From Pseudomonas entomophila (lineage in GTDB: Bacteria; Pseudomonadota; Gammaproteobacteria; Pseudomonadales; Pseudomonadaceae), in the NCBI RefSeq assembly GCF_018417595.1, contig NZ_CP070982.1, forward strand, positions 2,996,001 to 3,060,000: DNA of 64,000 bases. The letters are read 5' to 3'. Positions 44,933 to 63,463 of the stretch are shown one piece after another; the first letter of the stretch is position 1, and every line of letters begins with the position of its first letter. Made by a program: the position numbers and the translations under genes. Below the pieces are notes generated by a model that ran no database searches, was not told the origin of the DNA, and saw nothing but the letters and a program-made list of their open reading frames with translations.

Positions 44933-44952
44933 ACAGATTCCTGGGAGGCAGC

Positions 44953-47679: not shown

Positions 47680-47698
47680 CAGACCTGGAGGCACCACC

Positions 47699-49144
47699 AT
47701 GAACAAGCTCGCCCCCCTGAGCGCCGCCATTGTCCTGGCCCTGGCCGGCCAGGCCATGGCCGCCGACAGCAGCTCGACCCAGAACCAGCAGGGCAACAAG
47801 CACATCGCCGAAGTGAAACAGACCCTGGCGCCGTTCGCCTCGGCCACCCAGGACCAGACCGGCCACGACCACAACCACATGGCGGTGCAGGACAGCAGCA
47901 CCAGCCACATCCAGCAGGGTGCCAGCGGCGCGTTCAACGCCGGCTACGCCGAGCAGTTGTTCGAGAACGGCAGCCAGATCACCCAGCAGGCCGGCGGCAC
48001 CCTCAACGATGCCTTCGCCAGCCAATCGGTGGGCGAGAACAACCAGGCCCTGCAGGTGCAGGACGGCACGGGCAATCATTCGATCATCTGGCAGGACACC
48101 CAGCTGGGCAGCCAGGCCACCACCCTGCAGTCGGGCCAGCGCAACGATGCCACGGTCGAGCAGTTGTTCGGCGGCAGCAACAACAAGAGCCTGGTCATGC
48201 AGGCCGGCAGCGATAACCAGGCGGCCGCCGAGCACCTGACCCACAACAACGGCGATATCGCCATCTACCAGGACGGCAAGCAGAACTGGGCCTACGGCGA
48301 CCAGCGCGACGGCCTGGGCGGCACCATTGGTATCAGCCAGTACGGCACCGGGCACTCGGTGGAGGTCTGGCAGGACAACCAGGCCGCCAGCCAGGCCAAT
48401 GTCTACCAGACCGGGCAGCTCAACGAGGGCTACATCGACCAGAGCTTCGGCCAGGGCAACAGTGCCAGCCTGAGCCAGAACGGGCGGGCCAACGCCAGCT
48501 GGTCGGACCAGTTCGAGAGCAACCAGTCGGTGACCAGCATCAGCCAGACCGGTAACAACAACCTGCACTTCACCTACCAGACCGGCGACAACCACAGCCT
48601 GAGCATCAATACGACGGGCAACGGCAACAAGATCATGGCCAGCAACTGGAAGGGCGACAAGTCCGGCGGGCAGTTCGGCGACAGCCAGCGGGCGGTGGTC
48701 AACCAGGCCGGCAACGGCAACAGCGTCAACTTCGAACAGAAAGGCAGCAGCCAGCTGGCCCGGTTGAACCAGAACGGCAACCGCAACCAGATGGAGACCA
48801 AACAGGCCGACAGCAACAACGAGCTGTACTTCGAGCAGAACGGCAGCGACAACCTGCTGATCGCCGACCAACGTGGCAACGGCAACTACGCCGAGGGCGT
48901 GGCGGCCGGCAATGGCGGCAGCGTGACCCTGGATCAATCGGGCAGTGGCAACCAGAGCTTCACCTACCAGCTTTATGGCAGTGGCAACCAGGCTACCGTC
49001 AAGCAAGCCGATGGGGTCAATGTCGCCTATGTGACCCAGGGAGGTAACGGCAACCAGGCGTTTATCGACCAGAGCGGGGCCAGTCAGACGGCGACCATTA
49101 CCCAGTTCGGCAATACCAACATGGCGACTGTTACGCAGCAGTGA
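47699..49144 (+). CDS. csgA: Curlin major subunit, long CsgA-like amyloid protein
   Basis: A 481-residue protein with a signal peptide (MNKLAPLS...GQAMA) and about 18 tandem curlin-type repeats containing Q-x-G-x-x-N and paired glutamine/asparagine ladders (VMQAGSDNQAAAEH, VYQTGQLNEGYIDQ, VNQAGNGNSVNFEQ). E. coli CsgA has five repeats in about 150 residues, so this subunit is about three times longer. It is expected to be exported unfolded by CsgG (60436-61278) and to form extracellular amyloid fibres. Confidence 0.9.
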   Translation: MNKLAPLSAAIVLALAGQAMAADSSSTQNQQGNKHIAEVKQTLAPFASATQDQTGHDHNHMAVQDSSTSHIQQGASGAFNAGYAEQLFENGSQITQQAGGTLNDAFASQSVGENNQALQVQDGTGNHSIIWQDTQLGSQATTLQSGQRNDATVEQLFGGSNNKSLVMQAGSDNQAAAEHLTHNNGDIAIYQDGKQNWAYGDQRDGLGGTIGISQYGTGHSVEVWQDNQAASQANVYQTGQLNEGYIDQSFGQGNSASLSQNGRANASWSDQFESNQSVTSISQTGNNNLHFTYQTGDNHSLSINTTGNGNKIMASNWKGDKSGGQFGDSQRAVVNQAGNGNSVNFEQKGSSQLARLNQNGNRNQMETKQADSNNELYFEQNGSDNLLIADQRGNGNYAEGVAAGNGGSVTLDQSGSGNQSFTYQLYGSGNQATVKQADGVNVAYVTQGGNGNQAFIDQSGASQTATITQFGNTNMATVTQQ

Positions 49145-49990: not shown

Positions 49991-50044
49991 CTTGTAGGAG
50001 CCAGCTTGCTGGCGAAGGTTCGCCAGCAAGCTGGCTCCTACAAG
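49991..50044. terminator. Perfect 26-bp-arm palindrome, bidirectional terminator candidate
   Basis: The arms CTTGTAGGAGCCAGCTTGCT... (49991-50016) and their exact complement (50019-50044) are separated by 2 bp. It sits between the convergent alkB and LysR genes and contains the LysR stop codon (TAG at 50038-50040). The core resembles the REP subtype at 12805. Confidence 0.82.
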
Positions 50045-51003
50045 AGTATGGCGGCATCCTTGAACCACTCCCGGCGCTCATCGAACGCCGCCCGGATCAC
50101 CCCCACCATCACCTGCACCAGCGGATCGCCCTCGGTGTCGGTATTGACCGCCAACCACACACGTCGCCGCATCGGTTCATGGAACAAACCCGGCAATGCC
50201 AGCAAGCCACGGTCCAGATGCCCCGCGTAGTGCGGCAACAGGCCCACGCTGGCACTGCACTTGATCAACTGGCAGTACATTTCATAGCCCTGGATGCACG
50301 TCACCCCCGCAGACCTGCCTGCAAGCAGGGCCTGCCACTGGGCAAGCGCGGCCACGCCCTCCTCTCCCTGCCATTGCACCAGCATGTAGTCCTGCAGGTC
50401 CGCCAGGCTGCTTGGACGATTCGCTTCGCGCACATAGCGCTTGGCAATGTGCGGCAGGTATTCGAGGGTAGCCAGGGCCTCGGCAGACACACCAAACGGA
50501 TCGGCTGCGCGTAGGTCCCCCAACCATAACGCCACGTCGACTTCCTGGTCCGGCCCCCGGCGCCCATCGAGGGTGACCACTTCAAGGCGCATGCCCGCGT
50601 GTTGGCGCACCAGGTTGATCAAGCCGCGGCCTAATAGGTCCTGCAGCAGCGGCTCGGCCACCGCCAGCCTCACCGGCGTGGTCTGCACGCGCGCCAGCGC
50701 CGGCTCATCGGGCTCACGCGCCTGCAAGGCCAGCAGCAACCGCTCACCTTGCTGGCTGAGTACTGGCGTGTTGTTGCGATTGATGAACAGGCCATAGCCC
50801 AGACGTGCTTCCAGCACGGCCAAACGCTTGCGCAGCGCCACCGGCTTGAGGTTCAACCGCCGGGCCGCCTGCATGAAGCAGCCGCAACGGGCGGTGATGA
50901 CAAAACAGTCCAGGGTCTGTTCGTCCAGGGCCAGCGGCACCTGGGGGCGAACGACGGGCACGGCGGTTTCCGGGGTTTGGCCCCGGGACAGGTCGATCGG
51001 CAT
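50038..51003 (-). CDS. LysR-family transcriptional regulator
   Basis: A 321-residue LTTR. The HTH lies at about 30-90 (GCFMQAARRLNLKPVALRKRLAVLEARLG), followed by a substrate-binding-type effector domain. It has an unusual 25-residue N-terminal extension before the HTH. It lies 51 bp downstream of the PPIase gene on the same strand and could be the last gene of that operon. The target and ligand are unknown. Confidence 0.85.
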   Translation of the reverse strand: MPIDLSRGQTPETAVPVVRPQVPLALDEQTLDCFVITARCGCFMQAARRLNLKPVALRKRLAVLEARLGYGLFINRNNTPVLSQQGERLLLALQAREPDEPALARVQTTPVRLAVAEPLLQDLLGRGLINLVRQHAGMRLEVVTLDGRRGPDQEVDVALWLGDLRAADPFGVSAEALATLEYLPHIAKRYVREANRPSSLADLQDYMLVQWQGEEGVAALAQWQALLAGRSAGVTCIQGYEMYCQLIKCSASVGLLPHYAGHLDRGLLALPGLFHEPMRRRVWLAVNTDTEGDPLVQVMVGVIRAAFDERREWFKDAAILL

Positions 51004-51054
51004 CCCTTGCCTCCCACGGGCCCGATGCCCGGGCCCGGCTCTTCCGTGATGGGT

Positions 51055-52011
51055 CTAGTGGCTGCTCTCCAGCACCTGGTTCAACGCCGCGCCATCGATG
51101 CTCAGGGTGGCGCTGTCGAACATGCCTTCGACGTAAGCCTTGGCCACCTGCTCCTGGCGCTGGGCACGCAGCAACTGGCGCAGCCGCGGCGCGACCTCGT
51201 CGAACGTCGCCGCGCGGGCCGGTTGCTGCTCGGCCAGCTTGACGATGTGGTAGCCCGCCGCGCTTTGCACCGGTTCGCTGACCGTGCCTACCTTCAGCCT
51301 GGACACCACGCCGCGCACCTCCGGCAACAGCTGGGCCAAGGCTTGCAAGCCGGTGTCACCGCCGTTGGCAGCCGTGCCGGCATCCTGCGAGTGCTCCCGG
51401 GCCAACGCGGCGAAATCGGCATCGCTGGCCTGGGCCTGCTTGGCCAGCACCTGGGCCTGCTTGCGCACGGTCTCGTCGTCCCTGGGGTTCTCCACCCGCA
51501 GGAAGATCTGGCTCAGGCGGTAGCGCGCCGGCAACTGCAAGCCGGCCTTGCCGGCCTCGTAGGCCTGCTTGAGTTCTGCCTCGCTGGGGTAGTCGTCGGG
51601 CACCTTGCTCACCGATTCGAGGTAGTCGCGCAGCACGATCTGCTCGGTGGCGGCACGGGTCTGGGCCTGGATGTCCGGGCGTTGCAGCCAACCCTGGGCT
51701 TCGGCCTGCTGGTACAGCGCCTTTTCCGCCAGCCGCGCGCGGATCCAGGCCTCCAGTGCCGGCCGGTCGCCGCGCAGGCTGGCGCGGGCGTCCTCGGGCA
51801 ATTGGGCGAACAGTGCCTTGAGCTCGCCGCTACCGACCTGCTGCTCCCCCAGCCGGGCCAGGGTCGGGCCATTGTCGACCGCTGCCTGGATGACCGACGC
51901 CGCCGGGCGCGCCGCAGCCACCGGCTGCTCGCCCGGGCGCAAGGCCAGGGCGACCGCCACCGCGACCAGGGCCAGCGCACCAGCGCCGGCCCAGAGCGCA
52001 CGCGCCGTCAT
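51055..52011 (-). CDS. Membrane-anchored parvulin-type peptidyl-prolyl isomerase
   Basis: A 318-residue protein with an N-terminal signal anchor (about 5-25), a SurA/PrsA-like helical N-domain and a parvulin domain (about 160-260, RYRLSQIFLRVENP to SAAGYHIVKL). Parvulins of this type assist folding of exported or outer-membrane proteins. It is the last structural gene of the TpsB-ExbB-ExbD-TonB-porin operon and overlaps the previous gene (ATGA), so it probably serves as a chaperone for that system. Confidence 0.87.
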   Translation of the reverse strand: MTARALWAGAGALALVAVAVALALRPGEQPVAAARPAASVIQAAVDNGPTLARLGEQQVGSGELKALFAQLPEDARASLRGDRPALEAWIRARLAEKALYQQAEAQGWLQRPDIQAQTRAATEQIVLRDYLESVSKVPDDYPSEAELKQAYEAGKAGLQLPARYRLSQIFLRVENPRDDETVRKQAQVLAKQAQASDADFAALAREHSQDAGTAANGGDTGLQALAQLLPEVRGVVSRLKVGTVSEPVQSAAGYHIVKLAEQQPARAATFDEVAPRLRQLLRAQRQEQVAKAYVEGMFDSATLSIDGAALNQVLESSH

Positions 52012-52472
52012 GAGGCGCTCACCGCTGCGCTACCGGTCTGCTCGGCGACATTACGGCTGTAATCACGCAGGTAGACGATGAACTCCTGCAGCAGCCGGTC
52101 CCACAGCAGCAAGCTGCCCAGCAGGTGCTTCTCGCTGACGCCGTCGGCGACCACCACATCCTTCTCCATCACCAGGAATTCGCCCTGCACCGACAGGCGG
52201 GCGAAGCGTCGCGAGGCGTTCCAGCGTTCGGCCAGGCCTGCTGGCAACTCGCCCTGGATGCGCAACGCGCAGCTGAAGGTGAAATCGAGGAATTCGCCCT
52301 CCTGCCCCTGCGCACGATTGCCGAAACGTACGGCATAGCCCACGCCCTGGCTGGCACTGAGCAACTGCACCACGGCATTCTGCTCGCTGCGGTTGACCCG
52401 GCAGCCGGCGTCCTGCAACAGCTTGGTGAGGGAGTCGGCGCTCACGGTTTCGATCAGGGTGACTTCGGTCAT
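52008..52472 (-). CDS. YbjN-like protein of unknown function
   Basis: A 154-residue protein. The central part (NAVVQLLSASQGVGYAVRFG and EFLDFTFSCALRIQGEL) resembles the YbjN / secretion-chaperone-like fold, but I am not certain of the family. No signal peptide is seen. ATG 52472 is preferred over an upstream ATG that lacks a ribosome site. It overlaps the PPIase start and belongs to the operon by position. Confidence 0.65.
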   Translation of the reverse strand: MTEVTLIETVSADSLTKLLQDAGCRVNRSEQNAVVQLLSASQGVGYAVRFGNRAQGQEGEFLDFTFSCALRIQGELPAGLAERWNASRRFARLSVQGEFLVMEKDVVVADGVSEKHLLGSLLLWDRLLQEFIVYLRDYSRNVAEQTGSAAVSAS

Positions 52473-52501
52473 GTGTTGCCTTCCTTGTGGTGGTTGAATC
52501 G

Positions 52502-53149
52502 TCACGGCTTGACGCCCTTGGGGGCATCGAACTGGCTTTCATAGAGTCGATCACCGTAGGCCTGGGCGAGCTCCTCGAAACGTACCCGGGCTCCGCCGGC
52601 GAAGGGCTGGCGCATCTTCACGACATCGGCGATATCGACCTTCTCGTAGGCGGCCAGCATCTCCTTGGCCACCCCGTACATCTGTTGGTTACGCGCCTGG
52701 CACTGGCTCACCTGGCCGTCACGCTCGGCCAGCTGTGCCAGCAGCGCGGCGCGCTCGCCTTCCTTGCCCCGGGCCATGCCCAGCAGCTCTTCATAGGCTT
52801 GCTTGTATTTGTGCAGTTGCTCGCTGCTGCTGGCCACCAGCGCCTGGGCCTGGCTGTGCATGGCTTGCTGCTGGCCGGCCAGTTGCTCGGTCTGGCCGCG
52901 TGCCTTGGCCAACTGCGCGGTCAGCTCGCGCACCTGCGCCTGGGCGGCGTCGCGCTGTTGCTCGGCGGCCTGGCGGGCGGCGCTGGCCTGGGCCTGCTCG
53001 CTCTGCAGGGCCTGCAATTGCTGGGTGGTGCTGCGCAGTTGGGCGCGCAGGCGTTCCTCGAGGGTGTCGGCCGACACCGAGGCCGCCAGGCTCGCGCCCA
53101 GGGCCAGCATCAGCCAGGTGCAACGACGGCGATAGGCTCCCTTGTTCAT
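52502..53149 (-). CDS. Periplasmic coiled-coil protein
   Basis: A 215-residue protein with a signal peptide (cleaved about after AASVSA) and a long glutamine- and alanine-rich coiled coil (about 35-150). A short conserved tail follows (VRFEELAQAYGDRLYE). It could span the periplasm between the ExbBD/TonB complex and the porin or TpsB barrel. It is encoded 15 bp downstream of the porin. The function is unknown. Confidence 0.75.
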   Translation of the reverse strand: MNKGAYRRRCTWLMLALGASLAASVSADTLEERLRAQLRSTTQQLQALQSEQAQASAARQAAEQQRDAAQAQVRELTAQLAKARGQTEQLAGQQQAMHSQAQALVASSSEQLHKYKQAYEELLGMARGKEGERAALLAQLAERDGQVSQCQARNQQMYGVAKEMLAAYEKVDIADVVKMRQPFAGGARVRFEELAQAYGDRLYESQFDAPKGVKP

Positions 53150-53164
53150 GCCCATGCTCCTTCC

Positions 53165-54865
53165 CTAGAACCGCGTGTTGACTTCAAGTTGTAGCACATC
53201 GATATCAAACGGCGCGCCGTAGACTGCTTCGCTGCTCAACCAACGGGCGGTCGCGTAGACGTTGTCGGCCAGGCCGTAGTTGCCACCGAGGAAGTAGCCC
53301 TTGGCGTTGGTGCCGCCCAGGTGGAAGCTAGAATCGTTGAAACCGTCCGGCAGCGCGTCGGGCTCGATGCGCTTGTAGCCGGCGAACAGGTTCCAGTCGC
53401 CCGCCTTGCGCATGTCCAGGGCATTGCCCAGGGTGAACTGGAACATCCAGGCATCGCTGCCGCTCTTGATGTTGCCGTTCTCGTCGACGTTGTTGGCCAG
53501 CTGGCCGGCCGCGCGCTTGCGCATGTCGCCCTCGTCGTAGGCCAGGTTGTGGATGTAGTTGGCCTGGCTGCGCAGCTTGAAATCGTGGGGCAGGTCGGCG
53601 TCCCACACCAGGTTCAGGTCGAGCAGGTCGAACTCCGAGGCGATCCCCACGAACTGCGGCTGCGGCGTGGCGGCCGGGTTGGCCGGGTTCGGCGTGATGT
53701 CGCGCAGCAGGAACAGGGTGTTGCCCTTTTGCATGAAGGTCGGCCGGGTCTCGTCGCTGTCGCAGCCCGGCTGGCCGTTCCAAGGCGCGCAGGGGCTGGA
53801 GCGCTGGCCTGCGATATCGTCGAAGCGGTAGTAGGCCATGGCGCCCTTGAGCCGGTGGTGGTCGTTGATCGCCCACTTGGCGCCGAACTGGGCGCCGTAC
53901 AGCCACTTGTTCTCGCTGTCCTCCTTGTCGAAGCCGTTGCTGCTGGCGCTGTCGTCGCTGTACTGCACCGGAAACGCGCCGACGGTGCCGAACAGGCTGA
54001 GGTCGCGGTTCAGCGGCTGATCGAAGATCGCCGCCAGGCCGTCGAAGTTGAGGTCGTGGGAGTACAGGATGTCGGTGGACATGAACGGGTTGGCGATACG
54101 TCCGCCGGTCAGGGTCAGCCGCTCGCTGGGGCTCCAGCTCACATAGCCCTGGTCGAGCCACAGGTCCTTCTTGCCGAAGCCACCGCCCAGGTTCTGGGTG
54201 GTCGACACCGGGTTGTTGTTCGAGCCGGTGGCGATGCGGATGCCCGCCACCCAGTTTTCCGCCAACTGCGCTTTCAGGCCGAAGCGCGCGCGCAGGCGCA
54301 GGATGCTGTCACGGTCCTCGCGGGTATTGAGCAGCGGCGGCAGGCTGGAGCTGCTGTTGGGGTTGACGTCGTACGGCCCCTTCTCGTTGAGCTTGGCGAA
54401 GTCGACGATCTCATTGCTGTTGCCGTCGGCGTAGTAACGCGACTCGCCGCGCAGGCGCAGGTCGCCATCGAAACTGATGCGCGAAGCCCAGTCGGGAAAG
54501 CTGTTGGGCGCAGCCCAGTTTTCCTGCTTGGCGGTGTTCAGCACCTCGGCCTTGATCTCGTCGCGGATCTGCTGGCGGACGATGGCCGGCACGTACTGCA
54601 CGCGCACCTCGCCATTGGCCGCCGGGGCCTGGGCGACGATCGGCGCGGCGCTGGTGGCGGCGCGGGCCTGCTGGGCCTCGCGCTCGGCCTGGGCGATCAG
54701 CGCGTCGGCCTTGTCCTGCTTGAGCACGCCCTGCTCCACCAGCAGGCGGATCAGGTTGACGGTCGCGTTCTCCGACGGCGCGGCGTGGGCGACGGCCGGA
54801 CCGACCGCGGTGGCGGCGGCCAGCAGGCCGAGCGCCAGGGTCAATCGGTTCACTGGGCACTTCAT
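53165..54865 (-). CDS. Putative outer-membrane porin
   Basis: A 566-residue outer-membrane protein: signal peptide (cleaved about after AVAHA), a periplasmic helical segment (about 30-115) rich in alanine and glutamate, then a long beta-barrel region with alternating strands ending in the terminal phenylalanine of QLEVNTRF. This is the putative-porin family found beside TonB/ExbBD genes in many Proteobacteria. ATG 54865 gives a proper signal peptide. Confidence 0.82.
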   Translation of the reverse strand: MKCPVNRLTLALGLLAAATAVGPAVAHAAPSENATVNLIRLLVEQGVLKQDKADALIAQAEREAQQARAATSAAPIVAQAPAANGEVRVQYVPAIVRQQIRDEIKAEVLNTAKQENWAAPNSFPDWASRISFDGDLRLRGESRYYADGNSNEIVDFAKLNEKGPYDVNPNSSSSLPPLLNTREDRDSILRLRARFGLKAQLAENWVAGIRIATGSNNNPVSTTQNLGGGFGKKDLWLDQGYVSWSPSERLTLTGGRIANPFMSTDILYSHDLNFDGLAAIFDQPLNRDLSLFGTVGAFPVQYSDDSASSNGFDKEDSENKWLYGAQFGAKWAINDHHRLKGAMAYYRFDDIAGQRSSPCAPWNGQPGCDSDETRPTFMQKGNTLFLLRDITPNPANPAATPQPQFVGIASEFDLLDLNLVWDADLPHDFKLRSQANYIHNLAYDEGDMRKRAAGQLANNVDENGNIKSGSDAWMFQFTLGNALDMRKAGDWNLFAGYKRIEPDALPDGFNDSSFHLGGTNAKGYFLGGNYGLADNVYATARWLSSEAVYGAPFDIDVLQLEVNTRF

Positions 54866-54903
54866 GGGTTTGCAACTCCTGTGGGTCAGTCGTGCTTCGT
54901 TGT

Positions 54904-55578
54904 TCATGGCCGGCGCCCCTGCAGGGCGATCTTCACCGGCAACGTCAGGCTGGCGGGTGGGCGTTGGTCGAGGGCCGGCGCCGAACGCAAGGCGGCGATC
55001 ACCTGGGCGTCCACCTCGGATTCGCCGCTGCCGCGCAGCAGCTCGACGCGGGTAATCTCGCCGGCGGCGCTGAGCCAGATCTCGGCCTGCAGGTTGAACA
55101 CCAGGTTGCGCAGCTCGGGGTTGTCGCGCAGCAGGCGCTGGAAGGCGTAGGCCAGGTACTGGCTGTAGGTGCCGTTGCCCAAGCCCCCACCGCCGCCACC
55201 GGCCATGCCACCGCCCTTGCCGGCGCCGACGTTGAAACTGTCGCCGCCGGTCTGCGCATCGCCGTCCATCTGCATCGGCTCGGCCAGGTCCTGGGCCGGG
55301 TCCGGCGCGTCCTCGGCCGGCTTGACCTCCTCGGCCTCAGGCACCGGTTGCGGCTCGACGATCTTCTCCTCGACCGGTGGCTCCGGTTCCTTTGGCGGCT
55401 CCGGCGGCGGTGGCGGTAGGGGCGGCGGCAGCGGGATGATCGCCGGCACCTTGGGCGCCTCGCGGCGCACCCCGGCCATGTCGTTGGCCCACTGCCACAG
55501 CAGCCAGGCCAGGCCCGCGCCCGCTACGGCGAGCACGGCCCAGGTCAGCAGGCGACGGGGGTTGGCTGTACGTTCCAT
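54904..55578 (-). CDS. TonB-family energy transducer
   Basis: A 224-residue TonB-like protein: one N-terminal membrane helix (about 12-32), a proline-rich periplasmic spacer (about 45-100), a glycine-rich hinge (GGGMAGGGGGG) and a C-terminal TonB domain (about 150-222). It is encoded between ExbD and the porin, so it is probably dedicated to this operon rather than to siderophore uptake. It would transmit proton-motive force to an outer-membrane partner. Confidence 0.85.
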   Translation of the reverse strand: MERTANPRRLLTWAVLAVAGAGLAWLLWQWANDMAGVRREAPKVPAIIPLPPPLPPPPPEPPKEPEPPVEEKIVEPQPVPEAEEVKPAEDAPDPAQDLAEPMQMDGDAQTGGDSFNVGAGKGGGMAGGGGGGLGNGTYSQYLAYAFQRLLRDNPELRNLVFNLQAEIWLSAAGEITRVELLRGSGESEVDAQVIAALRSAPALDQRPPASLTLPVKIALQGRRP

Positions 55579-55586
55579 GCCTGCCC

Positions 55587-56012
55587 TCACCCCTGGTTCG
55601 GCTTGCCGGTGACCAGCCCGACCTGGGCCAGTTCGAGACGGCGCAGCAGGTCGAGCACCTCGACCACCTTCTGGTACTGCACGCCGGCGTCACCGCGCAC
55701 GATCAGCGGGAAGTCCGGGTTGCGCGCCTTCTCGCTGCGCAGGCGGTCCTCCAGCTCCTGCAAGGTCACCGGGTAGGCGTCGAGAAACACCTGGCCGGCG
55801 TCGTTGATCGAGATCGCCTTGGTCTTGGGCTGGGCCAGCGACACCGAGGCGCTGGCCTTGGGCAACTGCACCTGGATGCCCGACACCTGGGCGGTGGCAG
55901 TGAGGATGAACATCACCAGCACCACCATCAGCACGTCCACCAGTGGGGTGATGTTGATGCTGTCCACTGCGGCGTCGGCGTCGTCGTCATGGGCGTTGTT
56001 CACGGATGCCAT
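55587..56012 (-). CDS. ExbD/TolR-family biopolymer transport protein
   Basis: A 141-residue protein with one transmembrane helix (about 18-40, ITPLVDVLMVVLVMFIL). The conserved aspartate in PLVDV (about D25) carries protons, and a periplasmic domain follows. It pairs with the ExbB-type protein encoded 10 bp upstream and the TonB gene 8 bp downstream. Confidence 0.9.
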   Translation of the reverse strand: MASVNNAHDDDADAAVDSINITPLVDVLMVVLVMFILTATAQVSGIQVQLPKASASVSLAQPKTKAISINDAGQVFLDAYPVTLQELEDRLRSEKARNPDFPLIVRGDAGVQYQKVVEVLDLLRRLELAQVGLVTGKPNQG

Positions 56013-56022
56013 GGCTGCCTCC

Positions 56023-57828
56023 TCACGCCGGGACCGATGGGCTGACCGCGCGGCCCTGGGGGCGCTGCGCCGCTTCGCCGGCCTGCCCTTCGCCATGCAG
56101 CTCGGCCAGGCGGGTGATGAACTCGTCGACGAACACCCGCATGTCGGCGCCGACTTCGCGGTTACGGGTGGTCAGGCGGTTGTAGCCGAACAGCGCGGGG
56201 ATCGCGACGAACAGGCCCATGGCGGTGGCCAGCAGCGCCGCGGCCATGCCCGGGGCGATGGCGTTGATGTTCACATCGCCGGCCATGGCCGTGCCGAGGA
56301 ACACCACCATGATCCCCAGCACGGTGCCCAGCAGGCCGATGTAGGGGCCACCGGCAATGGCGTTGGACAGGGTCGACAGCTTGGACGACAGGGCCTGGTT
56401 CTCGCGGGTGCGCACACCGTCCATGGAGCAGCGGATCGCCTCGATGGTGGCGGCGGACACCAAGGTGGTGTCGGCACCTTGGGCGCGGCGGGTGCGCAGC
56501 TCCTGCACCGCCACCAGGTACAGGCGCCAAAGCGACGAACCCCGCAACCGCTCGTGCAGGTCTTGATCGTCGGCGAACTGCTCGAGGTGCGTACCCACCG
56601 TGGCGAAGTGTTCGCGGAACTGCGCATTGGCGGCGGTGATCCGGCTCAGGGCGCGCTGCTTGCGCAGCATGATCACCCACGACTGCACCATCATCAGTAC
56701 CAGCACGGCGATGATCACCCAGGCATCGACCGGCACTGCCTTGAGCAGAAAGCCCAGGCTGCCGAAGCCGAAGCCCGACTGTTCCTCATCGACGCCATAG
56801 GCCACCAGGCGCGACTCGGCGCCCTGGGCCAGCACATCCGCTTGCAGGCTGGCCTGGCTGCGGGCCACGCGGGAGATGCGCAGTTCATCCAGCGCGCCGA
56901 CGAAGGGGGCGAAGCCGCTGGCAGGCGTGCCTTCGCTGGCCGGCAAGTCGCCGCCGATGCCCACCGCGCCAGTGAACGCGGCCAGGCTGACGGCCAGTCG
57001 GGCCACCGGCTGGCCATCGACCAGCACGCTCAGGCTGCCGCCCTCGCCCACCAAAGCCAGGTGTTGCCACTGGCCAGCCGTCAGCGCCTGGTTGGCGCTG
57101 GCGCGCTGGCCATCCACCTCGACGAAGGCCACGCCCTGGGCCAGGCCCAGCAGCAGGCTGTGCCCCGCCTCGCGGCGGGCCAGCAGCAGCTGTTCGCCCA
57201 CCGCCTGGTCCTGGCGTAGCCAGGTGCTGAAGGTGAAGGCCGCGCCGGCAGGCAATTGCAGCGAAGCACTGGCCGGCAGTTGCAGGGCCTGGCCACCCAG
57301 CTGGATGGCCCGGCCGATCACGCCGTCGACCGCCACGGCCTGGCCTTGCAGTTGATTGCCATACGGGCTGGCATCGCGCGGGCCGGCGCCGTCGAAGTGG
57401 TACAGCGCGGTGTAGTCGGCGTCGAAGCTGGGCTGGCCGTTGGCGGGCTGGACCTTGGGGTTGCCGTAGTACATCCAGATGTCCTGGCGCTGGCCGGGCT
57501 CGATGCGCGGCACGTCGACCCAGATCAGGGCCATGCCCATCAGCGGGTCGAACTGCTCGATATGGTGGTTGAGCACGGTCTTGTCGTCGGCGCCGACGAA
57601 GCGGATATCCGCGCCGGTCTCGCTGACACCATCGAAGGTGAAGTTGCCGGTGTGCAGGCGCACCAGCAACGCAGTACGGCCCAGCGCCTGGGTCAGGCCG
57701 GCGCCTTGCGGGGTGGTGTCCACGGCAATTTGCTTGCGGTACAGCCAGTCGTCCTGCCACCAGGCGCTGGCGCTGCCCGGCAGGGCGAAGCCCAGGCACA
57801 GCAGCAGGGTCAATATCAGGCGTTGCAT
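56023..57828 (-). CDS. MotA/TolQ/ExbB-type channel fused to DUF2341 and lectin-like ectodomain
   Basis: A 601-residue protein. A signal peptide (cleaved about after GSASA) precedes a DUF2341-like domain (about 25-130, WLYRKQIAVDTT) and a LamG/concanavalin-type domain (about 150-335, AFTFSTWLRQDQ). Three C-terminal transmembrane helices of the ExbB/TolQ class follow (about 362-382, 500-525 and 535-560, with GPYIGLLGTVLGIM). E. coli ExbB has no such ectodomain, so a periplasmic carbohydrate- or protein-binding module is attached to the proton channel. It lies 32 bp downstream of the TpsB gene. Confidence 0.88.
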   Translation of the reverse strand: MQRLILTLLLCLGFALPGSASAWWQDDWLYRKQIAVDTTPQGAGLTQALGRTALLVRLHTGNFTFDGVSETGADIRFVGADDKTVLNHHIEQFDPLMGMALIWVDVPRIEPGQRQDIWMYYGNPKVQPANGQPSFDADYTALYHFDGAGPRDASPYGNQLQGQAVAVDGVIGRAIQLGGQALQLPASASLQLPAGAAFTFSTWLRQDQAVGEQLLLARREAGHSLLLGLAQGVAFVEVDGQRASANQALTAGQWQHLALVGEGGSLSVLVDGQPVARLAVSLAAFTGAVGIGGDLPASEGTPASGFAPFVGALDELRISRVARSQASLQADVLAQGAESRLVAYGVDEEQSGFGFGSLGFLLKAVPVDAWVIIAVLVLMMVQSWVIMLRKQRALSRITAANAQFREHFATVGTHLEQFADDQDLHERLRGSSLWRLYLVAVQELRTRRAQGADTTLVSAATIEAIRCSMDGVRTRENQALSSKLSTLSNAIAGGPYIGLLGTVLGIMVVFLGTAMAGDVNINAIAPGMAAALLATAMGLFVAIPALFGYNRLTTRNREVGADMRVFVDEFITRLAELHGEGQAGEAAQRPQGRAVSPSVPA

Positions 57829-57860
57829 GAGGGCTCTCCAGGGCGATGCCGGTCGGTGAT

Positions 57861-59441
57861 TCAGAAAGTTGCCTGCACGCTGAAGTGCACGCGCGAGTCG
57901 TTCTTGTCGGTGTTGGGGGCGTCCTTCAAGGGCACGGCCCAGTCGAGGCTGCCGGACAACCAGTCGTTGAGCGTGGCGCGGGTACCCACGCCGACGCTGG
58001 CCAGGCTGTAGCGGTCGTCCTGCTCGGGCAGGGCATCCTGCAGGCGCAGCTGGGCGCCTTCGGCGAACAGGTAGAAGCGCCAGTCGCTGATGTAGCTGCC
58101 GACATAGCGGCCCAGGGAGGGGGTGCGCAGCTCCTGGGACAGCAGCACGCCGTCGTCGCCGGTGCGCTCGGCGGCCAGGTAGCCGCGCACCGAGGTGGCG
58201 CCGCCGGCGGCGAACTGCTCGTTCGACACCAGTGGCCCGGAGGCCAGCTGGAAGGCCAGCTTCGAGGCGCTCTGCCATTGCCCGGCGAAGTCGAAGGTGT
58301 AGCTGGCGTCGCCCTTGAGCGCGGCGAAGCTCGAATTGGCGCGGTAGCGCTTGTAGTCGAACGCCTGGTCGTCACTGTTGTACCCCAGCAGCCCACGGGT
58401 TCCGGCCACCAGGCTCAGGCCCAGGCTCAGCTGGTCGCGCTCGGTGAAGCGATAGCCGTTGTAGCCCAGGGTGATGGGCGAGTACTTGAGCGGGACCTTG
58501 TCGTTGTTGCCGCCCAGGGCGACCTTCTCGTCGAAGTCCTTGAAGTCGATGCCGATCGACAGCGCGTTGGCCCAGGCGCCGACGCCCGGCAGGTTGTAGA
58601 TGGCGGACACACCGTAGGAGTGGCCCTTGCCCAATACGTTGGTGCCGCCCACAGTGGCCACGTTGCTGTCGGAGTGGTAACCGGAAAATTGCAGCGTCCA
58701 GCGCTCGTTCAGCGGCGCGGCGTAGGCGCCGGACCAGACCTGGGCGTTGTCGCGGTCTTCGGGGGCGGTGAACCAGGTCAGCGACACGCTGTGCCCGGCC
58801 TGCCACAGGTTGTTGTAGCCAAGGCTGACGACGCTGCGCAGCTTCTCGGTGTCGGCGCTGTGGTCGTTGTTCAACCCCAGGCTCAGGTTCCAGGGCTGCT
58901 TGTCCTCGACCTGCAGGTCGACGTCCATCGTGCCCGGCCGTTGGCCCTCGCGCACCAGCGGCAGCACCTGGCGGCCCGGCGTTCGGTTGAGGGTGGCCAG
59001 CTCGTTCTGCACCTGGGCGAAATCGGGCACCTTGCCCTCCTTCAGCGCCGGCACCTGCTCGCGGATCTCCACCGGCGAATAGTGCTTGGCCCCGACCACG
59101 CGCACCCGGCCGACCTTGGTCTCGGTGACCTGCAGGTAGACCACGCCGCCCTCGACCTTCTGCTCCGGCAGCTCGACGAACACAGACTGGTAGCCCCGGG
59201 CCTGGTAGCTTTTCTGCAGCGCCTCACGGGCGCCCTCGAGGTCGGCCAGGGTTCGGTCCGGGCCGAGGTACGGGTACACCGCCTCCTCGATGGCCTGGGC
59301 GTCGAGCACGGTGTTGCCGCGCACCACGTACTCGTTGATCTCGACCCGGCGTTCAGGCTCGTTGGCAAGCGCCGTGGCGGACAGCAGGCACAGCAGTGCC
59401 CCTGCGCCCATGCCGCATCGTTTGAAGAAAAAATGCTCCAC
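57861..59441 (-). CDS. TpsB/FhaC/ShlB-type outer-membrane transporter
   Basis: A 526-residue two-partner-secretion transporter: signal peptide, POTRA domains (about 30-190, INEYVVRGNTVLDAQAIEEAVYPYL and GRVRVVGAKHYS) and a 16-strand barrel. The L6 motif VRGY lies in GGATSVRGYLAAE (about 400), and the barrel ends in VQATF. No TpsA haemagglutinin-like partner is encoded in the window. The start is GTG at 59441 with a GGGGG ribosome site; an ATG ten codons in is possible. Confidence 0.9.
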   Translation of the reverse strand: MEHFFFKRCGMGAGALLCLLSATALANEPERRVEINEYVVRGNTVLDAQAIEEAVYPYLGPDRTLADLEGAREALQKSYQARGYQSVFVELPEQKVEGGVVYLQVTETKVGRVRVVGAKHYSPVEIREQVPALKEGKVPDFAQVQNELATLNRTPGRQVLPLVREGQRPGTMDVDLQVEDKQPWNLSLGLNNDHSADTEKLRSVVSLGYNNLWQAGHSVSLTWFTAPEDRDNAQVWSGAYAAPLNERWTLQFSGYHSDSNVATVGGTNVLGKGHSYGVSAIYNLPGVGAWANALSIGIDFKDFDEKVALGGNNDKVPLKYSPITLGYNGYRFTERDQLSLGLSLVAGTRGLLGYNSDDQAFDYKRYRANSSFAALKGDASYTFDFAGQWQSASKLAFQLASGPLVSNEQFAAGGATSVRGYLAAERTGDDGVLLSQELRTPSLGRYVGSYISDWRFYLFAEGAQLRLQDALPEQDDRYSLASVGVGTRATLNDWLSGSLDWAVPLKDAPNTDKNDSRVHFSVQATF

Positions 59442-59476
59442 ACCGCCCCCTTGAGCGCCAGGAATTCGTTGGGTTT

Positions 59477-60094
59477 CTAGTGGTTGTGATCGGGCGCGCC
59501 CGGACCGTGGTGACGGGCCAGCCAGCTGTGCAGCAAGGCCAGGTTGAGGCTGAACTCCGGCAGCGCCTGCAGGCTGGCGCCGAGCACTTCATCGACCATG
59601 CGCTGCAACAGCGACACCGCCATGGCGCTGCCCAGCAACAGCCCCAGGTCGTGGCTGAACAGGTTGAAGTTCCACACCCGTGACTTGAGTTCGAGGCCGG
59701 CGAACCAGCGGAACAGCAGGTTGTAGTTGAGCTGTTCGTAGAGCTGCTTCTCGCTGGGCACCGAATACAGCAGCTGCAACAGCAGCACGTGCATCAGCGT
59801 GTGCGGGGCGATGGTCATGCCCTGCTGCTCGGCCAGCAGGGCCAGCGGCGCCTGGTACTCGCCCAGCAGCGTGTCGATGCGCGGCTTGAGCAGGGCCAGC
59901 GAATGCCCTGGCGGCACGCAACTGGCCACCTCGCGCAGGGCGCCCTGCCAGTCCTCCTGGGAGACGATCCATACCCACGGCGCGCCGTAGCGGTACACCG
60001 AGACCGGCTGCTTGCGCGCCGCTTCGACGATCTTCGCCAGGCGCTGGTCGAGCTCCTGCATCCCCACTTTGGTGTAGCGTTCCATAGTTCCCAT
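59477..60094 (-). CDS. Phd-like / DUF772 (transposase N-terminal) fusion protein
   Basis: A 205-residue protein with two parts. Residues about 10-55 resemble Phd/YefM antitoxin-type folds (MQELDQRLAKIVEAARKQPV, then YRYGAPWVWIVSQEDW). Residues about 70-145 match the N-terminal DUF772 domain of IS5/IS1182 transposases (LLGEYQAPLALLAEQQG, SEKQLYEQLNYNLLFRWFAGL). The catalytic DDE core is absent. It stands at the head of the TpsB operon, so it may be a regulator derived from a transposase and an antitoxin. This fusion reading is inference. Confidence 0.7.
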   Translation of the reverse strand: MGTMERYTKVGMQELDQRLAKIVEAARKQPVSVYRYGAPWVWIVSQEDWQGALREVASCVPPGHSLALLKPRIDTLLGEYQAPLALLAEQQGMTIAPHTLMHVLLLQLLYSVPSEKQLYEQLNYNLLFRWFAGLELKSRVWNFNLFSHDLGLLLGSAMAVSLLQRMVDEVLGASLQALPEFSLNLALLHSWLARHHGPGAPDHNH

Positions 60095-60435: not shown

Positions 60436-61278
60436 CTACGGCTGCTGATACTGGCTCAGGTACTTGTCCAGCACCGCCTTGTCCCCCACCCCGTCCGCCG
60501 CCACCTGCCACAACCGCCGTTCGATGCCCTGGGCCAGCAGGTGCCCCACCGCCGCCTCGATGGCCGACAACACACATAACTGCGCCGGTTCGTTGGTGGT
60601 GTAGCCCACTTCGGCTTCGAGCAGCTTCTTGAACTCGATGAACTTGAACACCCCGGCGCTGCGCCCAACCGAATAGATGGTCTTGCTGGTCATCACATTG
60701 GCCAGCACCTGCCCGGTACGCACGTCCACCGCGCGCAGGTTCACGGTCACCTGGTCGACCCGGTACTCGCGGGAGATGTCGATACCCAGGTAGCGCGCGC
60801 CCTCGCCGCCGCTGCGCACGTTGGTGTCGTAGGCGATGATGCCGCCTTCGAGCATCAGGTTGGCGGCCTGCAACGGCGGCAGCTCGCCCTGGATGTTCTC
60901 GGCCACGTCGGGCTTTTTCTGCGAGGCGCGGATGATCTTGCGCTCGGTCAGCAGGTTCTGCAGGCCCTCGCGTTCGAGCACCACGAACCAGCCGCTGGCG
61001 TTGAGCGCGTCCATCAGCATGCTCGCCGCGCCCTGGGTGACGCTGGTGGAGAACGAGCTGGCCGGGGTCGGCTTGTACTGCCCGGTCTGGTCGCGGAAAC
61101 CGTACACCACCGCCATCAGCCGCCCGCGCGGCCGAGGCATGTTGATCAGGTCGTAGTAGGTCGAGGCCCGTGGCGTCAGGGTCGGGGTCTCGGCATCCTG
61201 TTCGGCGGGCATCGGCTCGCGCAGGCCGCAGCCTTGCAGGGCGGCGAGGATCAGCAACGTGCTCAGCAGGCGTTTCAT
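60436..61278 (-). CDS. csgG: Curli secretion channel lipoprotein CsgG
   Basis: A 280-residue outer-membrane lipoprotein with lipobox LQGC (cysteine at about 17). The CsgG fold regions are visible: VVYGFRDQTGQYKP (about 57-70), a beta-hairpin region near FSTSVTQGAASML, VLEREGLQNLLTERKIIR and YLGIDISREYRVDQVTVNLRAVDV. CsgG forms the nonameric pore that secretes CsgA and CsgB. It lies downstream of csgF (33 bp) and is the last gene of the unit. Confidence 0.93.
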   Translation of the reverse strand: MKRLLSTLLILAALQGCGLREPMPAEQDAETPTLTPRASTYYDLINMPRPRGRLMAVVYGFRDQTGQYKPTPASSFSTSVTQGAASMLMDALNASGWFVVLEREGLQNLLTERKIIRASQKKPDVAENIQGELPPLQAANLMLEGGIIAYDTNVRSGGEGARYLGIDISREYRVDQVTVNLRAVDVRTGQVLANVMTSKTIYSVGRSAGVFKFIEFKKLLEAEVGYTTNEPAQLCVLSAIEAAVGHLLAQGIERRLWQVAADGVGDKAVLDKYLSQYQQP

Positions 61279-61311
61279 GGTGTTCTCTCCCCGGTAATGA
61301 TCCTGCCCCTC

Positions 61312-61731
61312 TCAGGGGTTCAGGCCGCTCACGTCGATGATCGAGACTTCCCCCGTGGCCCGGTCGGTGACCCGGATGCTCAGGGCTCCCGAGTCGTCGA
61401 GCACATCGATGAGGAAGGCGTCGGTGGCCATGCTGCCGCCCTTGCCGTTGCCGATGTTGTCCAGCAACTGCCCCAGCAACCGCGACTCGAGCTGGTTGCT
61501 GAAGCGCTCCAGGGCGCTGGTGCCGCTGAACGCCGAGGCGCGGTCCTTGAGGTCCGGGTCGTCGTGGTCGTTCTGCGCCTGGGCGTTGTTGAGCAGCCAG
61601 GTGCCGTTCAGCGGGTTGCCGCCGAACGCCGGGTTCACCGGCGTGTACACCAGCTCCGTGGCCAGGGCCTGGCCGGCGAGGCTGGCAGCCAGCAGGCAGG
61701 CGGCGATACGCAGGGGGGTGTGGGTGCTCAT
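61312..61731 (-). CDS. csgF: Curli assembly protein CsgF
   Basis: A 139-residue secreted protein with a signal peptide (cleaved about after GQALA) and the conserved mature N-terminus ELVYTPVNPAFGGNPLNG, which in E. coli CsgF inserts into the CsgG pore and forms its second constriction. It helps couple secretion to nucleation at the cell surface. The start overlaps the csgE stop (ATGA). Confidence 0.93.
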   Translation of the reverse strand: MSTHTPLRIAACLLAASLAGQALATELVYTPVNPAFGGNPLNGTWLLNNAQAQNDHDDPDLKDRASAFSGTSALERFSNQLESRLLGQLLDNIGNGKGGSMATDAFLIDVLDDSGALSIRVTDRATGEVSIIDVSGLNP

Positions 61732-62120
61732 AGCTCGTCCCTCTCCAGGTCGGTTGTGTCCTGCAGCAGCCGTTGCAGCTTGCGCTGGACGATCTGCTGG
61801 CGGACCAGGTCCGCGGCCTCGATGGCCTCGTCGTTCAGTTGCGTGGTGTTCGGCGGCAGGAAGCGCCGGTACACCACCTCGCGTTCGTACTCCACCGTCA
61901 CCAGGCTGCCCCAGCGGGCATCCGGGCGCTCGCGCACCACGAGGTTGAAGTCCAGCCGGCTGGTGGCGCGCAGCCGGTCGCTGAAGGCGTAGTAGAAGTC
62001 GTGGCCGATGTGCGAGATGGTGTTGTCGACGATGAAGCCCATCATCTCGTCCTCGTCGCCGGCACTTGCCTGGCCCGGCAACACCAGGCACAGGCACAGG
62101 GCGATGGCCAGGCGGTTCAT
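61728..62120 (-). CDS. csgE: Curli secretion specificity factor CsgE
   Basis: A 130-residue periplasmic protein with a signal peptide (cleaved about after GQASA) and the CsgE domain (MMGFIVDNTISHIGHDFYYAF, then VYRRFLPP). CsgE caps the CsgG pore and selects curlin subunits. The ATG overlaps the stop of the upstream pseudopilin gene (ATGA), an unusual link between curli and type II-like genes. Confidence 0.93.
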   Translation of the reverse strand: MNRLAIALCLCLVLPGQASAGDEDEMMGFIVDNTISHIGHDFYYAFSDRLRATSRLDFNLVVRERPDARWGSLVTVEYEREVVYRRFLPPNTTQLNDEAIEAADLVRQQIVQRKLQRLLQDTTDLERDEL

Positions 62121-62638
62121 GGCGCGTCTCCCGGGCCGTTGTGCCGGCGCGCGCCACCGGCGCCTTCGGCGAAGGCCTGCTCGGCAACGAACTGCCAGTC
62201 GCTGTAGTGCTCAAGCCCCTCGAAGCCGCTCCACTGGGCATCGAAGCCGCTGCGCTTGAGCGGCAGCGCAGCGGAACGGCTGTGCACACCGGTGATGCGG
62301 CCATCGACCGCGCGCAGCAGGCCCCAGTCGTCGCTGCCGGTCAGCGGGTCGGGGTACAGCCTGCGGATATGCCGGCGTGGCGTGGGGAAGCGGTTGTCCT
62401 CGACCAGCTCGCCCAGGTCCTGCGGGTACTGGGCCAGCCCCGGCGAAGCGCGGTAGTAGCTGCGCAGGGCCTGGGCGTACTGGCCACCCACCCACAGCAG
62501 TTGGCGCTCGTGCTCGCGCTGGGCGCTGGTGGCCCACAGCATGCCGGTGGCGGCCAGGGCCACGCTGCTGACCGCGATCAGCAGCAGCACGCCCAGGTAG
62601 GTGAAGCCGGCTTCACCATTCGGCATAGAGGCTGCCAT
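62117..62638 (-). CDS. Pseudopilin-like protein lacking Glu5 (minor pseudopilin candidate)
   Basis: A 173-residue protein with a prepilin-type leader and hydrophobic helix. Cleavage is predicted after G in PNGEAG before FTYLGVLLLIAVSSVAL. Position 5 of the mature protein is glycine instead of the usual glutamate, a trait of tip (GspK-like) pseudopilins. GGGAGG lies just before ATG 62638; ATG 62626 is an alternative. It overlaps the neighbours on both sides and precedes csgE. Confidence 0.8.
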   Translation of the reverse strand: MAASMPNGEAGFTYLGVLLLIAVSSVALAATGMLWATSAQREHERQLLWVGGQYAQALRSYYRASPGLAQYPQDLGELVEDNRFPTPRRHIRRLYPDPLTGSDDWGLLRAVDGRITGVHSRSAALPLKRSGFDAQWSGFEGLEHYSDWQFVAEQAFAEGAGGARRHNGPGDAP

Positions 62639-62987
62639 CGCGCGCCCTCCCGCTGGCTCCGCTCTTGATGTCGGCCACGCCGCCCGCCACGCCCTCGGGT
62701 GGCGGCAGCAGTCGCCAGCCATCGCGGCGTTCGCTGATCGGGTCGACCGGGGTGTTGCGCAGGTAGCGCTGTTCCACCAGTTGCTCGAGGGAATCGGGGT
62801 AATGCCCGGTGTCGCCGTAGTAGTGGTCCAGGGCCTCGCGCAGCACCGCCAGGCTCTGGCGCAAGGTGGCCTCGCGGGATGCCTCGAGGCTGTTGAAGTA
62901 GCGCGGCAAGGCGATGGTCATCAGGGTCGCGATGATCGCCATCACCACCAGCAGCTCGATCAGGGTGAAACCTTGGCTGCGTTTCAT
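62613..62987 (-). CDS. Type II/IV-type pseudopilin (GspG/GspH-like, short)
   Basis: A 124-residue pseudopilin: leader MKRSQG, cleavage before FTLIELLVVMAIIATLMTIA with E5 present, then a small globular part (HYYGDTGHYPDSLEQLVEQ and RRDGW segments). The length fits GspG-type major pseudopilins. An ATG at 62999 would add VTV residues. It overlaps the preceding pseudopilin's end and the start of the next. Confidence 0.85.
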   Translation of the reverse strand: MKRSQGFTLIELLVVMAIIATLMTIALPRYFNSLEASREATLRQSLAVLREALDHYYGDTGHYPDSLEQLVEQRYLRNTPVDPISERRDGWRLLPPPEGVAGGVADIKSGASGRARDGSLYAEW

Positions 62988-62992
62988 CACTG

Positions 62993-63463
62993 TCACCATT
63001 GCCCGTAGGGGATGCCGTTCAGGCCTTTGCCCGTGGCCGTGGAATACACGTCGAACACGTCCTCGCCTTCGCGCGGGTTGTCGGCGCTGCTGTCGTAGGC
63101 GCGCAGCCCCCAGCCGCCCTGGTCGTCGGCCTTGGCCGGGCGCAGCGGGTCGCGGGGGATGCGGCGCAGGAAGTAGAACCGGGCGCCCTTGGCGCTGCGC
63201 ACGTCGCGCACGCCCTCGACCAGCACCTGCAGGCTCGGCGGGTAGCCGCTGGCATTCAGGCGCTTCTCGATGTAGCCGGCGTCGAAGGCGCGCTTGTAGG
63301 CGTCGATGGCGTCGCGGATCTGGTACAGGGCCTCGCGCAGCTGTTGTTCCTTGCCACGGCGCACCACCGTCTCGGTCAGTGGCGCGGCCATGCTGGCGAG
63401 CAGGCCCAGCAGCGCCAGGGTGAGCACCACCTCGATCAGGCTGAAGCCTCGTTGGCGGTTCAT
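62993..63463 (-). CDS. Type II-type pseudopilin (GspG-like)
   Basis: A 156-residue pseudopilin: leader MNRQRG, cleavage before FSLIEVVLTLALLGLLASMA with E5 present, then RDAIDAYKRAFDAGYIEKR and a calcium-loop-like tail. ATG 63463 overlaps the stop of the secretin gene (ATGA), so the secretin and pseudopilins are coexpressed. Confidence 0.87.
   Translation of the reverse strand: MNRQRGFSLIEVVLTLALLGLLASMAAPLTETVVRRGKEQQLREALYQIRDAIDAYKRAFDAGYIEKRLNASGYPPSLQVLVEGVRDVRSAKGARFYFLRRIPRDPLRPAKADDQGGWGLRAYDSSADNPREGEDVFDVYSTATGKGLNGIPYGQW

What the first reader, a model, noticed from the sequence alone, without database searches (positions are those of the whole stretch)
51055..60094. TonB-ExbBD-TpsB-porin-PPIase operon as a possible energised outer-membrane secretion system
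One minus-strand unit encodes a TpsB transporter, an ExbB-type channel, ExbD, TonB, a porin, a periplasmic coiled coil, a YbjN-like protein and a parvulin chaperone, with gaps of 8 to 38 bp. Two-partner secretion is not known to need TonB energy. A dedicated Exb-TonB motor next to a TpsB barrel and curli genes suggests an undescribed proton-driven export or assembly machine.
Basis: partly seen in the sequence, partly recalled or inferred. Interest (0 to 1): 0.72.

Follow-up and report, generated by a model that had tools for sequence, protein, structure and literature searches.

The report
Motor-linked two-partner secretion operon
This bacterial operon pairs an outer-membrane protein exporter, of a class thought to run without energy, with its own proton-driven motor, and in the genomes sampled parts of the set travel with one family of giant secreted proteins, so it may be an energised secretion machine.

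Summary
The operon is real (50038-60094, minus strand): PhdA-like, TpsB-type transporter, DUF2341-LamG-ExbB fusion, ExbD-like, TonB-like, Porin_5, coiled coil, YbjN, PpiC, LysR. It is not undescribed: it matches the Pseudomonas aeruginosa phdA-pdtB-exbB2-exbD2-tonB4-PA0696-PA0701 cluster; its link with two-partner secretion was noted in 2009, and the motor was "still uncharacterized" in 2020. What I add: (1) strong Porin_5 and DUF3739, the C-terminal domain of giant TpsA exoproteins, occur together in 29 of 31 positive genomes of three samples, in 26 within about 20 kb; here the DUF3739 TpsA lies 437 kb away with no TpsB beside it. (2) The motor's ion-path residues are conserved. (3) The 15 module TpsBs read form a branch apart from 26 others and lack the N-terminal stretch that holds the H1 plug helix. 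(4) Most DUF3739 tails carry a strand-like motif. Best reading: a two-partner secretion variant in which a proton motor takes over gating and helps to secrete, release or anchor the exoprotein. One system: well supported. Energised secretion: inference. An import role (as in HxuABC) remains a serious rival. The curli link is incidental.

The parts
59477..60094 (-). PhdA-like protein (DUF772 transposase-type domain, weak Phd_YefM); first gene of the unit
   Evidence: PMC7035377 for P. aeruginosa phdA (PA0691)
57861..59441 (-). TpsB-type transporter (PdtB counterpart): two POTRA domains, Omp85 barrel, VRGY motif, no room for the H1 plug helix
56023..57828 (-). ExbB/TolQ-type channel subunit with signal peptide (by eye) and a large N-terminal DUF2341 + LamG (lectin-like) region
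55587..56096 (-). ExbD/TolR-type subunit with conserved membrane Asp (PLVD)
54904..55590 (-). TonB/TolA-like energy transducer (Pro-rich linker, TonB_2 C-terminus)
53165..54907 (-). Porin_5: N-terminal helices, linker, RV(P/Q)YVP motif, barrel of about 16 strands (low-confidence model)
52502..53155 (-). coiled-coil protein with signal peptide by eye (PA0697 counterpart)
52008..52505 (-). YbjN-family protein (PA0698 counterpart)
51055..52011 (-). PpiC-type parvulin with hydrophobic N-terminus by eye (PA0699 counterpart)
50038..51003 (-). LysR-type regulator (PA0701 counterpart), 51 bp downstream

Best explanation
The operon encodes the outer-membrane transporter and a dedicated proton-motor complex of one two-partner secretion variant whose substrates are giant DUF3739 TpsA exoproteins (here the 4159-aa protein at G000:C1:3486200-3498679, outside the window). 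Shown: the gene set, the co-occurrence of its porin and DUF2341 parts with DUF3739 TpsAs, intact ion-path residues, a separate TpsB branch without the H1 stretch. Inferred: TpsA reaches the periplasm by Sec, PpiC and the coiled-coil protein hold it, TpsB exports it from its N-terminus; because the pore has no plug helix, gating is taken over by the motor. The ExbB/ExbD-type channel uses proton flow to move the TonB-like arm, which engages TpsB, the Porin_5 N-terminus or the conserved C-terminal strand of the TpsA to complete export, release the exoprotein or hold it at the surface. Porin_5 is a fixed outer-membrane partner of unknown exact role.
For:: strong Porin_5 (E below 1e-100) in 9 and DUF3739 in the same 9 of 299 genomes; TpsB-type POTRA_2 in 169 of 299 (141 over the cut-off). 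DUF2341 in 8 of 299, all within those 9. Repeated: in 190 genomes of the order of G255, 21 and 21, shared 20; in 189 of the order of G200, the same 3. Different genomes: both in 29 of 31 positives. Match starts lie 1.4-20.3 kb apart in 26 of these 29. Strong Porin_5 is next to ExbB, ExbD or TonB in 20 of 21 loci read. The window TpsB has no TpsA beside it, and the only DUF3739 TpsA of the genome has no TpsB beside it. ExbD membrane Asp 26 of 26 rows; ExbB Thr 17 of 17 rows holding the stretch, 16 different genes. TpsB tree: 15 module against 26 others, one split, 100/100, also with four long-branch rows left out (15 against 22, 100/100). Signal-core-to-POTRA1 spacer 4-38 residues in the 15, 43-74 in the 26. 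TpsA tail motif in 29 of 36 tails (shuffled mean 0.19, maximum 2), 31 when two over-trimmed ones are read in full. P. aeruginosa: one promoter transcribes phdA to PA0701 (PMC4971064).
Against: No experiment that I could read links the motor to secretion. Type V secretion is said to need no energy (PMC5422565, PMC9355242). No classical TonB box was recognised in TpsB or porin. PA0695 and PA0692 mutants had no zebrafish phenotype (PMC2729926). Motor subunits score best with TolQ/TolR, not ExbB/ExbD. H1-less FhaC is recalled to remain able to secrete. The tail motif is shared by homologues and may serve another purpose. Two of 31 positive genomes are discordant (G371, porin only; G421, DUF3739 only). 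G284, one of the nine, shows no POTRA_2 or DUF2341 match. Module TpsBs were chosen because they lie beside the module, the 26 others mostly from the top of the list, so whether H1-less TpsBs of this branch occur without a motor was not searched. The tree programme warns of long branches meeting, also in the second tree.
Confidence: 0.5

Rival explanations
1. Import model, as in HxuABC: TpsB displays the TpsA at the surface without energy, the TpsA captures a ligand, and Porin_5 plus the TonB-like motor takes the ligand (for example a phosphorus source) up.
For: The operon is phosphate-starvation induced in P. aeruginosa (PMC4971064, PMC7035377). HxuABC couples TPS to a TonB-dependent transporter (PMC5422565). 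A PstS-like protein gene (PF12849) lies upstream of the window genome's TpsA. Porin_5 goes with the system as closely as the DUF2341-ExbB does.
Against: Porin_5 shows no receptor plug or receptor barrel domain in Pfam; its model, of low confidence, is nearest OmpM1 and general porins. The import model does not explain the H1-less TpsB branch.
Confidence: 0.25
2. Tol-like envelope model: the TolQR-like motor and TonB/TolA-like arm tether, position or seal the outer membrane around the TpsB/porin assembly during export of a giant protein, or signal its state to a sigma/anti-sigma system, without powering translocation.
For: NCBIfam: TolQ 151 bits over ExbB 77; TolR 89 over ExbD 65. ECF sigma and FecR genes beside the module in L119, FecR in L126. 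In P. aeruginosa the cluster is under VreI/VreR (PMC2729926).
Against: None of these NCBIfam models passes its cut-off. No Pal-like domain among the ten operon genes.
Confidence: 0.18
3. Mere co-regulation: unrelated low-phosphate genes share a promoter.
For: In P. aeruginosa the operon is a regulon unit (PMC4971064). PhdA and the LysR were not matched in the distant modules L119-L126; YbjN was matched in L103 and L156.
Against: Co-occurrence and mostly close linkage in genomes of the same class and of other classes of the phylum, 29 of 31.
Confidence: 0.05

Closest known systems
P. aeruginosa PdtA/PdtB cluster (PA0690-PA0701, PUMA3/VreI regulon)
   Same: Same gene order phdA, pdtB, exbB2, exbD2, tonB4, PA0696 (porin), PA0697, PA0698 (YbjN), PA0699 (PpiC), PA0701 (LysR) as given in PMC7035377 and PMC4971064; proteins named P. 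aeruginosa in the list are 70-72% identical to the window TpsB.
   Different: In P. aeruginosa pdtA (PA0690) is numbered next to phdA (PA0691); here the DUF3739 TpsA is 437 kb away. I had no P. aeruginosa PdtA sequence, so its DUF3739 domain was not tested. Whether the window genome has a VreAIR system was not settled.
FhaB/FhaC and CdiA/CdiB two-partner secretion
   Same: TpsB with POTRAs, Omp85 barrel and VRGY motif; best solved folds are CdiB 6wim and FhaC 4ql0; the TpsA carries the TPS domain PF05860.
   Different: No H1 stretch; separate TpsB branch; motor, porin and coiled coil beside it; DUF3739 C-terminus of the TpsA.
ExbB-ExbD-TonB and TolQ-TolR-TolA systems
   Same: Channel subunits with conserved membrane Asp/Thr, Pro-rich arm with TonB_2-type end.
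   Different: Below the NCBIfam cut-offs, nearer TolQ/TolR; channel subunit carries DUF2341 + LamG (PMC12505986, passages, names DUF2341 among N-terminal domains of unknown function in non-flagellar channel subunits); no receptor or Pal gene in the unit.
HxuABC (Haemophilus)
   Same: A TPS pair together with a TonB-linked outer-membrane protein (PMC5422565, passage).
   Different: HxuC is a TonB-dependent transporter; here a motor set is encoded with the TpsB and the barrel is Porin_5.

Membership tests
TpsB two-partner transporter | ShlB/POTRA_2 domains, Omp85 barrel, (V)RGY motif | tested here: met
TpsB two-partner transporter | N-terminal H1 plug helix before POTRA1 (called a specific feature in PMC9355242) | tested here: not met
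   15 of 15 module TpsBs have a 4-38 residue spacer, 26 of 26 others 43-74 (crude hydrophobicity rule); filed therefore as a variant branch, not as a canonical TpsB
TPS system | A TpsA with TPS domain for this TpsB | tested here: inconclusive
   The unlinked TPS/DUF3739 protein at C1:3486200-3498679 is the only one of four TpsAs without a TpsB beside it, but one further TpsB (C1:662846) also lacks a TpsA; in distant genomes such a TpsA is adjacent; pairing not shown by experiment
TPS system | Secretion without an energy source | not testable with these tools
   needs mutants
TonB system (ExbB/ExbD/TonB) | NCBIfam ExbB, ExbD, TonB models above cut-off | tested here: not met
   ExbB 76.6 (206.2), ExbD 65.4 (216), tonB_Cterm 24.8 (27.1); Pfam MotA_ExbB, ExbD and TonB_2 cut-offs are met
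Tol-Pal system | TolQ/TolR models above cut-off, Pal partner | tested here: not met
   TolQ 151.1 (221), TolR 89.4 (127.3); no Pal domain among the ten operon genes
TonB-dependent receptor | Plug and receptor-barrel domains in the porin | tested here: not met
   only Porin_5 and a weak OMP_b-brl match; weak model
P. aeruginosa PdtB operon type | Gene order phdA-pdtB-exbB2-exbD2-tonB4-PA0696..PA0701 | tested here: met
   against the order in PMC7035377 and PMC4971064; PA0700 has no counterpart that I identified

The most novel reading that the evidence does not exclude
A proton-driven form of type V secretion: an unplugged TpsB branch whose giant DUF3739 exoproteins are exported, released or held by a dedicated TolQR/ExbBD-like motor, the TonB-like arm gripping a strand at the exoprotein's C-terminus or the Porin_5 N-terminus.
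Probability: 0.4. Interest if true: 0.86.

Novelty: new variant of a known kind. Interest (0 to 1): 0.63.

Why it matters
Type V secretion and the Omp85 transporters are held to work without energy at the outer membrane (PMC5422565, PMC9355242). A TpsB branch that has lost the plug stretch and sits beside its own proton motor would, if the motor drives it, break that rule and give a simple genetic handle: delete one motor gene and follow one exoprotein. It would also give functions to Porin_5, DUF3739, the DUF2341-ExbB fusion and P. aeruginosa TonB4, for which I found none in the papers searched.

Tried and rejected
Curli connection: csgEFG in 2 of 80 loci, rejected as incidental. TpsA beside the operon in the Pseudomonas loci: the first 450 residues of the genome's four TpsAs gave 0 hits in the 80 loci. 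Classical TonB box in TpsB: the mature N-terminus runs into POTRA1 almost at once, none recognised; the Porin_5 motif (26 of 26 loci) and the TpsA tail are only candidates. Pho box upstream of phdA or of the TpsA: a simple scan at 11 of 14 matches found none; regulation in this genome is open. VreA: an STN match in a 265-aa frame at C1:2299969, neighbours not conclusive. Weak PF16930 matches were left out of the counts: G237, G286, G154 and further places in G000 (best 2.3e-32); G318, G402, G404, G434, G439 (best 8.7e-24). The three genomes and the five with weak matches only have no DUF3739 match. My regular expressions failed on 16 of 25 ExbD and 4 of 18 ExbB rows and were replaced by alignments. 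The tail motif missed 7 of 36; two of these (L200, L207) had been trimmed too short and do show it; L199, for one, does not. The porin model is weak (pLDDT 58.5) and the N-terminal 30 residues of the TpsB model are below 50, so both are hints only. The TpsB tree was rebuilt without four long rows: same split, but the programme still warns of long branches.

Literature: I read passages of PMC2729926, PMC4971064 (and one whole section), PMC7035377, PMC5422565, PMC9355242 and PMC12505986; other papers only as search listings. Faure et al. 2014 (PdtAB) and Petrova et al. 2011 (PhdA) are not held and were not read. 'DUF3739' is in 0 papers of the library, PF16930 and PF12545 in 0 and DUF2341 in 6; PUMA3, TpsB and ExbB together only in PMC2729926. 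Most subscription papers are not in that library.
Full report
Observation. Pfam finds PhdA-like (DUF772), TpsB (POTRA_2, ShlB), a DUF2341-LamG-MotA_ExbB fusion, ExbD, TonB_2, Porin_5, YbjN, PpiC-type rotamase, a coiled-coil protein without a match over cut-off, and after 51 bp a LysR regulator. The nearest named relative is a Pseudomonas entomophila contig, 97% identical over the ExbB fusion. In the 80 loci kept of 219 relatives, matches are TpsB 80, ExbD 80, TonB 79, porin 77, coiled coil 77, YbjN 76, PpiC 76, PhdA 75, LysR 75; csgEFG only 2.

It is a known gene cluster. P. aeruginosa has the same order: phdA, pdtB, exbB2, exbD2, tonB4, PA0696 (putative porin), PA0697, PA0698 (YbjN), PA0699 (PpiC), PA0701 (LysR); [quoted passage not shown] PMC4971064 (passages and one section read) states that one promoter transcribes phdA to PA0701 and that it answers to VreI and PhoB. 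PMC2729926 (passages read) already noted TPS, ExbBD and PA0696 homologues together in P. fluorescens, P. [quoted passage not shown]

The missing partner. The genome has four TpsA matches (PF05860) and five TpsB matches (PF08479). Three TpsAs have a TpsB beside them; the window TpsB and one at C1:662846 have no TpsA beside them. The one TpsA without a TpsB, 4159 aa at C1:3486200-3498679, carries the genome's only DUF3739 match and is 437 kb from the porin gene. In distant genomes TpsAs of this kind lie next to the module. The pairing is by exclusion and synteny elsewhere, not shown.

Co-occurrence test. In 299 Pseudomonadota genomes drawn evenly, strong Porin_5 matches occur in 9 (12 genomes with the weak ones) and DUF3739 in exactly these 9; DUF2341 in 8, all among them (the ninth, G284, has a 3.8-kb contig there, and also no POTRA_2 match). 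POTRA_2 is in 169, 141 over the cut-off. DUF2341 also rings in two archaeal control genomes, so the domain itself is not exclusive. In 190 genomes of the order of G255, DUF3739 is in 21 and strong Porin_5 in 21, shared 20; the discordant G371 (partial porin at bases 37-1008 of its contig) and G421 (DUF3739 at base 398 of its contig) are drafts. In 189 genomes of the order of G200, both are in the same 3. Samples share G255, G019 and G200, so 29 of 31 different positive genomes have both. Distances between match starts: 1.4-20.3 kb in 26 of 29; different contigs in two (G130, G284); 437 kb in the window genome. Fisher tests give p of 2e-17, 8e-25 and 9e-7, but genomes are related, so these overstate the case. 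Strong Porin_5 stands beside ExbB, ExbD or TonB in 20 of 21 loci read; in G268 the ExbB and ExbD are on another contig.

The motor. The ExbD membrane Asp is kept in 26 of 26 rows, the ExbB Thr in 17 of 17 rows that hold the stretch (16 different genes; two fragments do not reach it). The subunits resemble TolQ (151 bits) and TolR (89 bits) more than ExbB and ExbD, below every NCBIfam cut-off, so 'ExbBD-TonB' is a convenient name, not a proven membership.

The transporter. The 15 module TpsBs read form one side of a branch with 100/100 support against 26 other TpsBs, and against 22 when four long rows are left out; the programme warns of long branches both times. All 15 have only 4-38 residues between the signal core and POTRA1, the 26 others 43-74 (a crude hydrophobicity rule); the AlphaFold model shows two POTRAs and a barrel and no helix in that space, with low confidence in the first 30 residues (mean pLDDT 73.7). 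The 15 were picked by position beside the module and the 26 mostly from the top of a list, so the branch as a whole was not censused. [quoted passage not shown] Best solved folds are CdiB and FhaC.

Porin and exoprotein. Porin_5 has N-terminal helices, a variable linker, then an RV-x-(Y/F)-(V/I)-P type motif in 26 of 26 loci, and a barrel of about 16 strands in a weak model nearest OmpM1 and general porins. After DUF3739 the TpsAs carry a linker and then a strand-like motif, 5 to 69 residues from the end, in 29 of 36 tails (shuffled mean 0.19), 31 when two over-trimmed tails are read in full. The tails are homologous, so this shows conservation, not independent origin. Both motifs are candidate docking strands for the TonB-like arm; nothing here shows binding.

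Judgement. That these genes form one system with DUF3739 TpsAs is strongly supported. That the motor powers, gates or completes secretion is the most economical reading of an unplugged TpsB branch beside a motor, but it is inference; a ligand-import role and a Tol-like envelope role are not excluded. The finding is a new variant of two-partner secretion whose key test is a simple knockout.

Noticed in passing
60436-62120 and 47209-49144: CsgG, CsgF and CsgE genes upstream and two curlin-repeat proteins downstream flank the operon on opposite strands; this arrangement is rare among the relatives read.
   Followed up: partly
62117-64000 and L089:6460-12328: Type II secretion-like genes directly upstream of csgE (one N-methylation motif; secretin and ATPase named by eye).
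   Followed up: no
43586-47193: Two large adjacent proteins, the second with bacterial Ig/cadherin-like domains, just before the curlin-repeat genes.
   Followed up: no
L118:7634-9298 (G000:C1:662633-664297): Another TpsB-type gene with no PF05860 TpsA beside it in the same genome.
   Followed up: partly
L094:16953-18224: PstS-like (PF12849) protein gene upstream of the DUF3739 TpsA, same direction.
   Followed up: partly
G552: One genome with six DUF3739 matches but a single Porin_5, suggesting one transporter-motor set serving several exoproteins.
   Followed up: no
L221:9206-9973: Small frame with an STN match in the window genome, possibly a VreA-like receptor part.
   Followed up: partly
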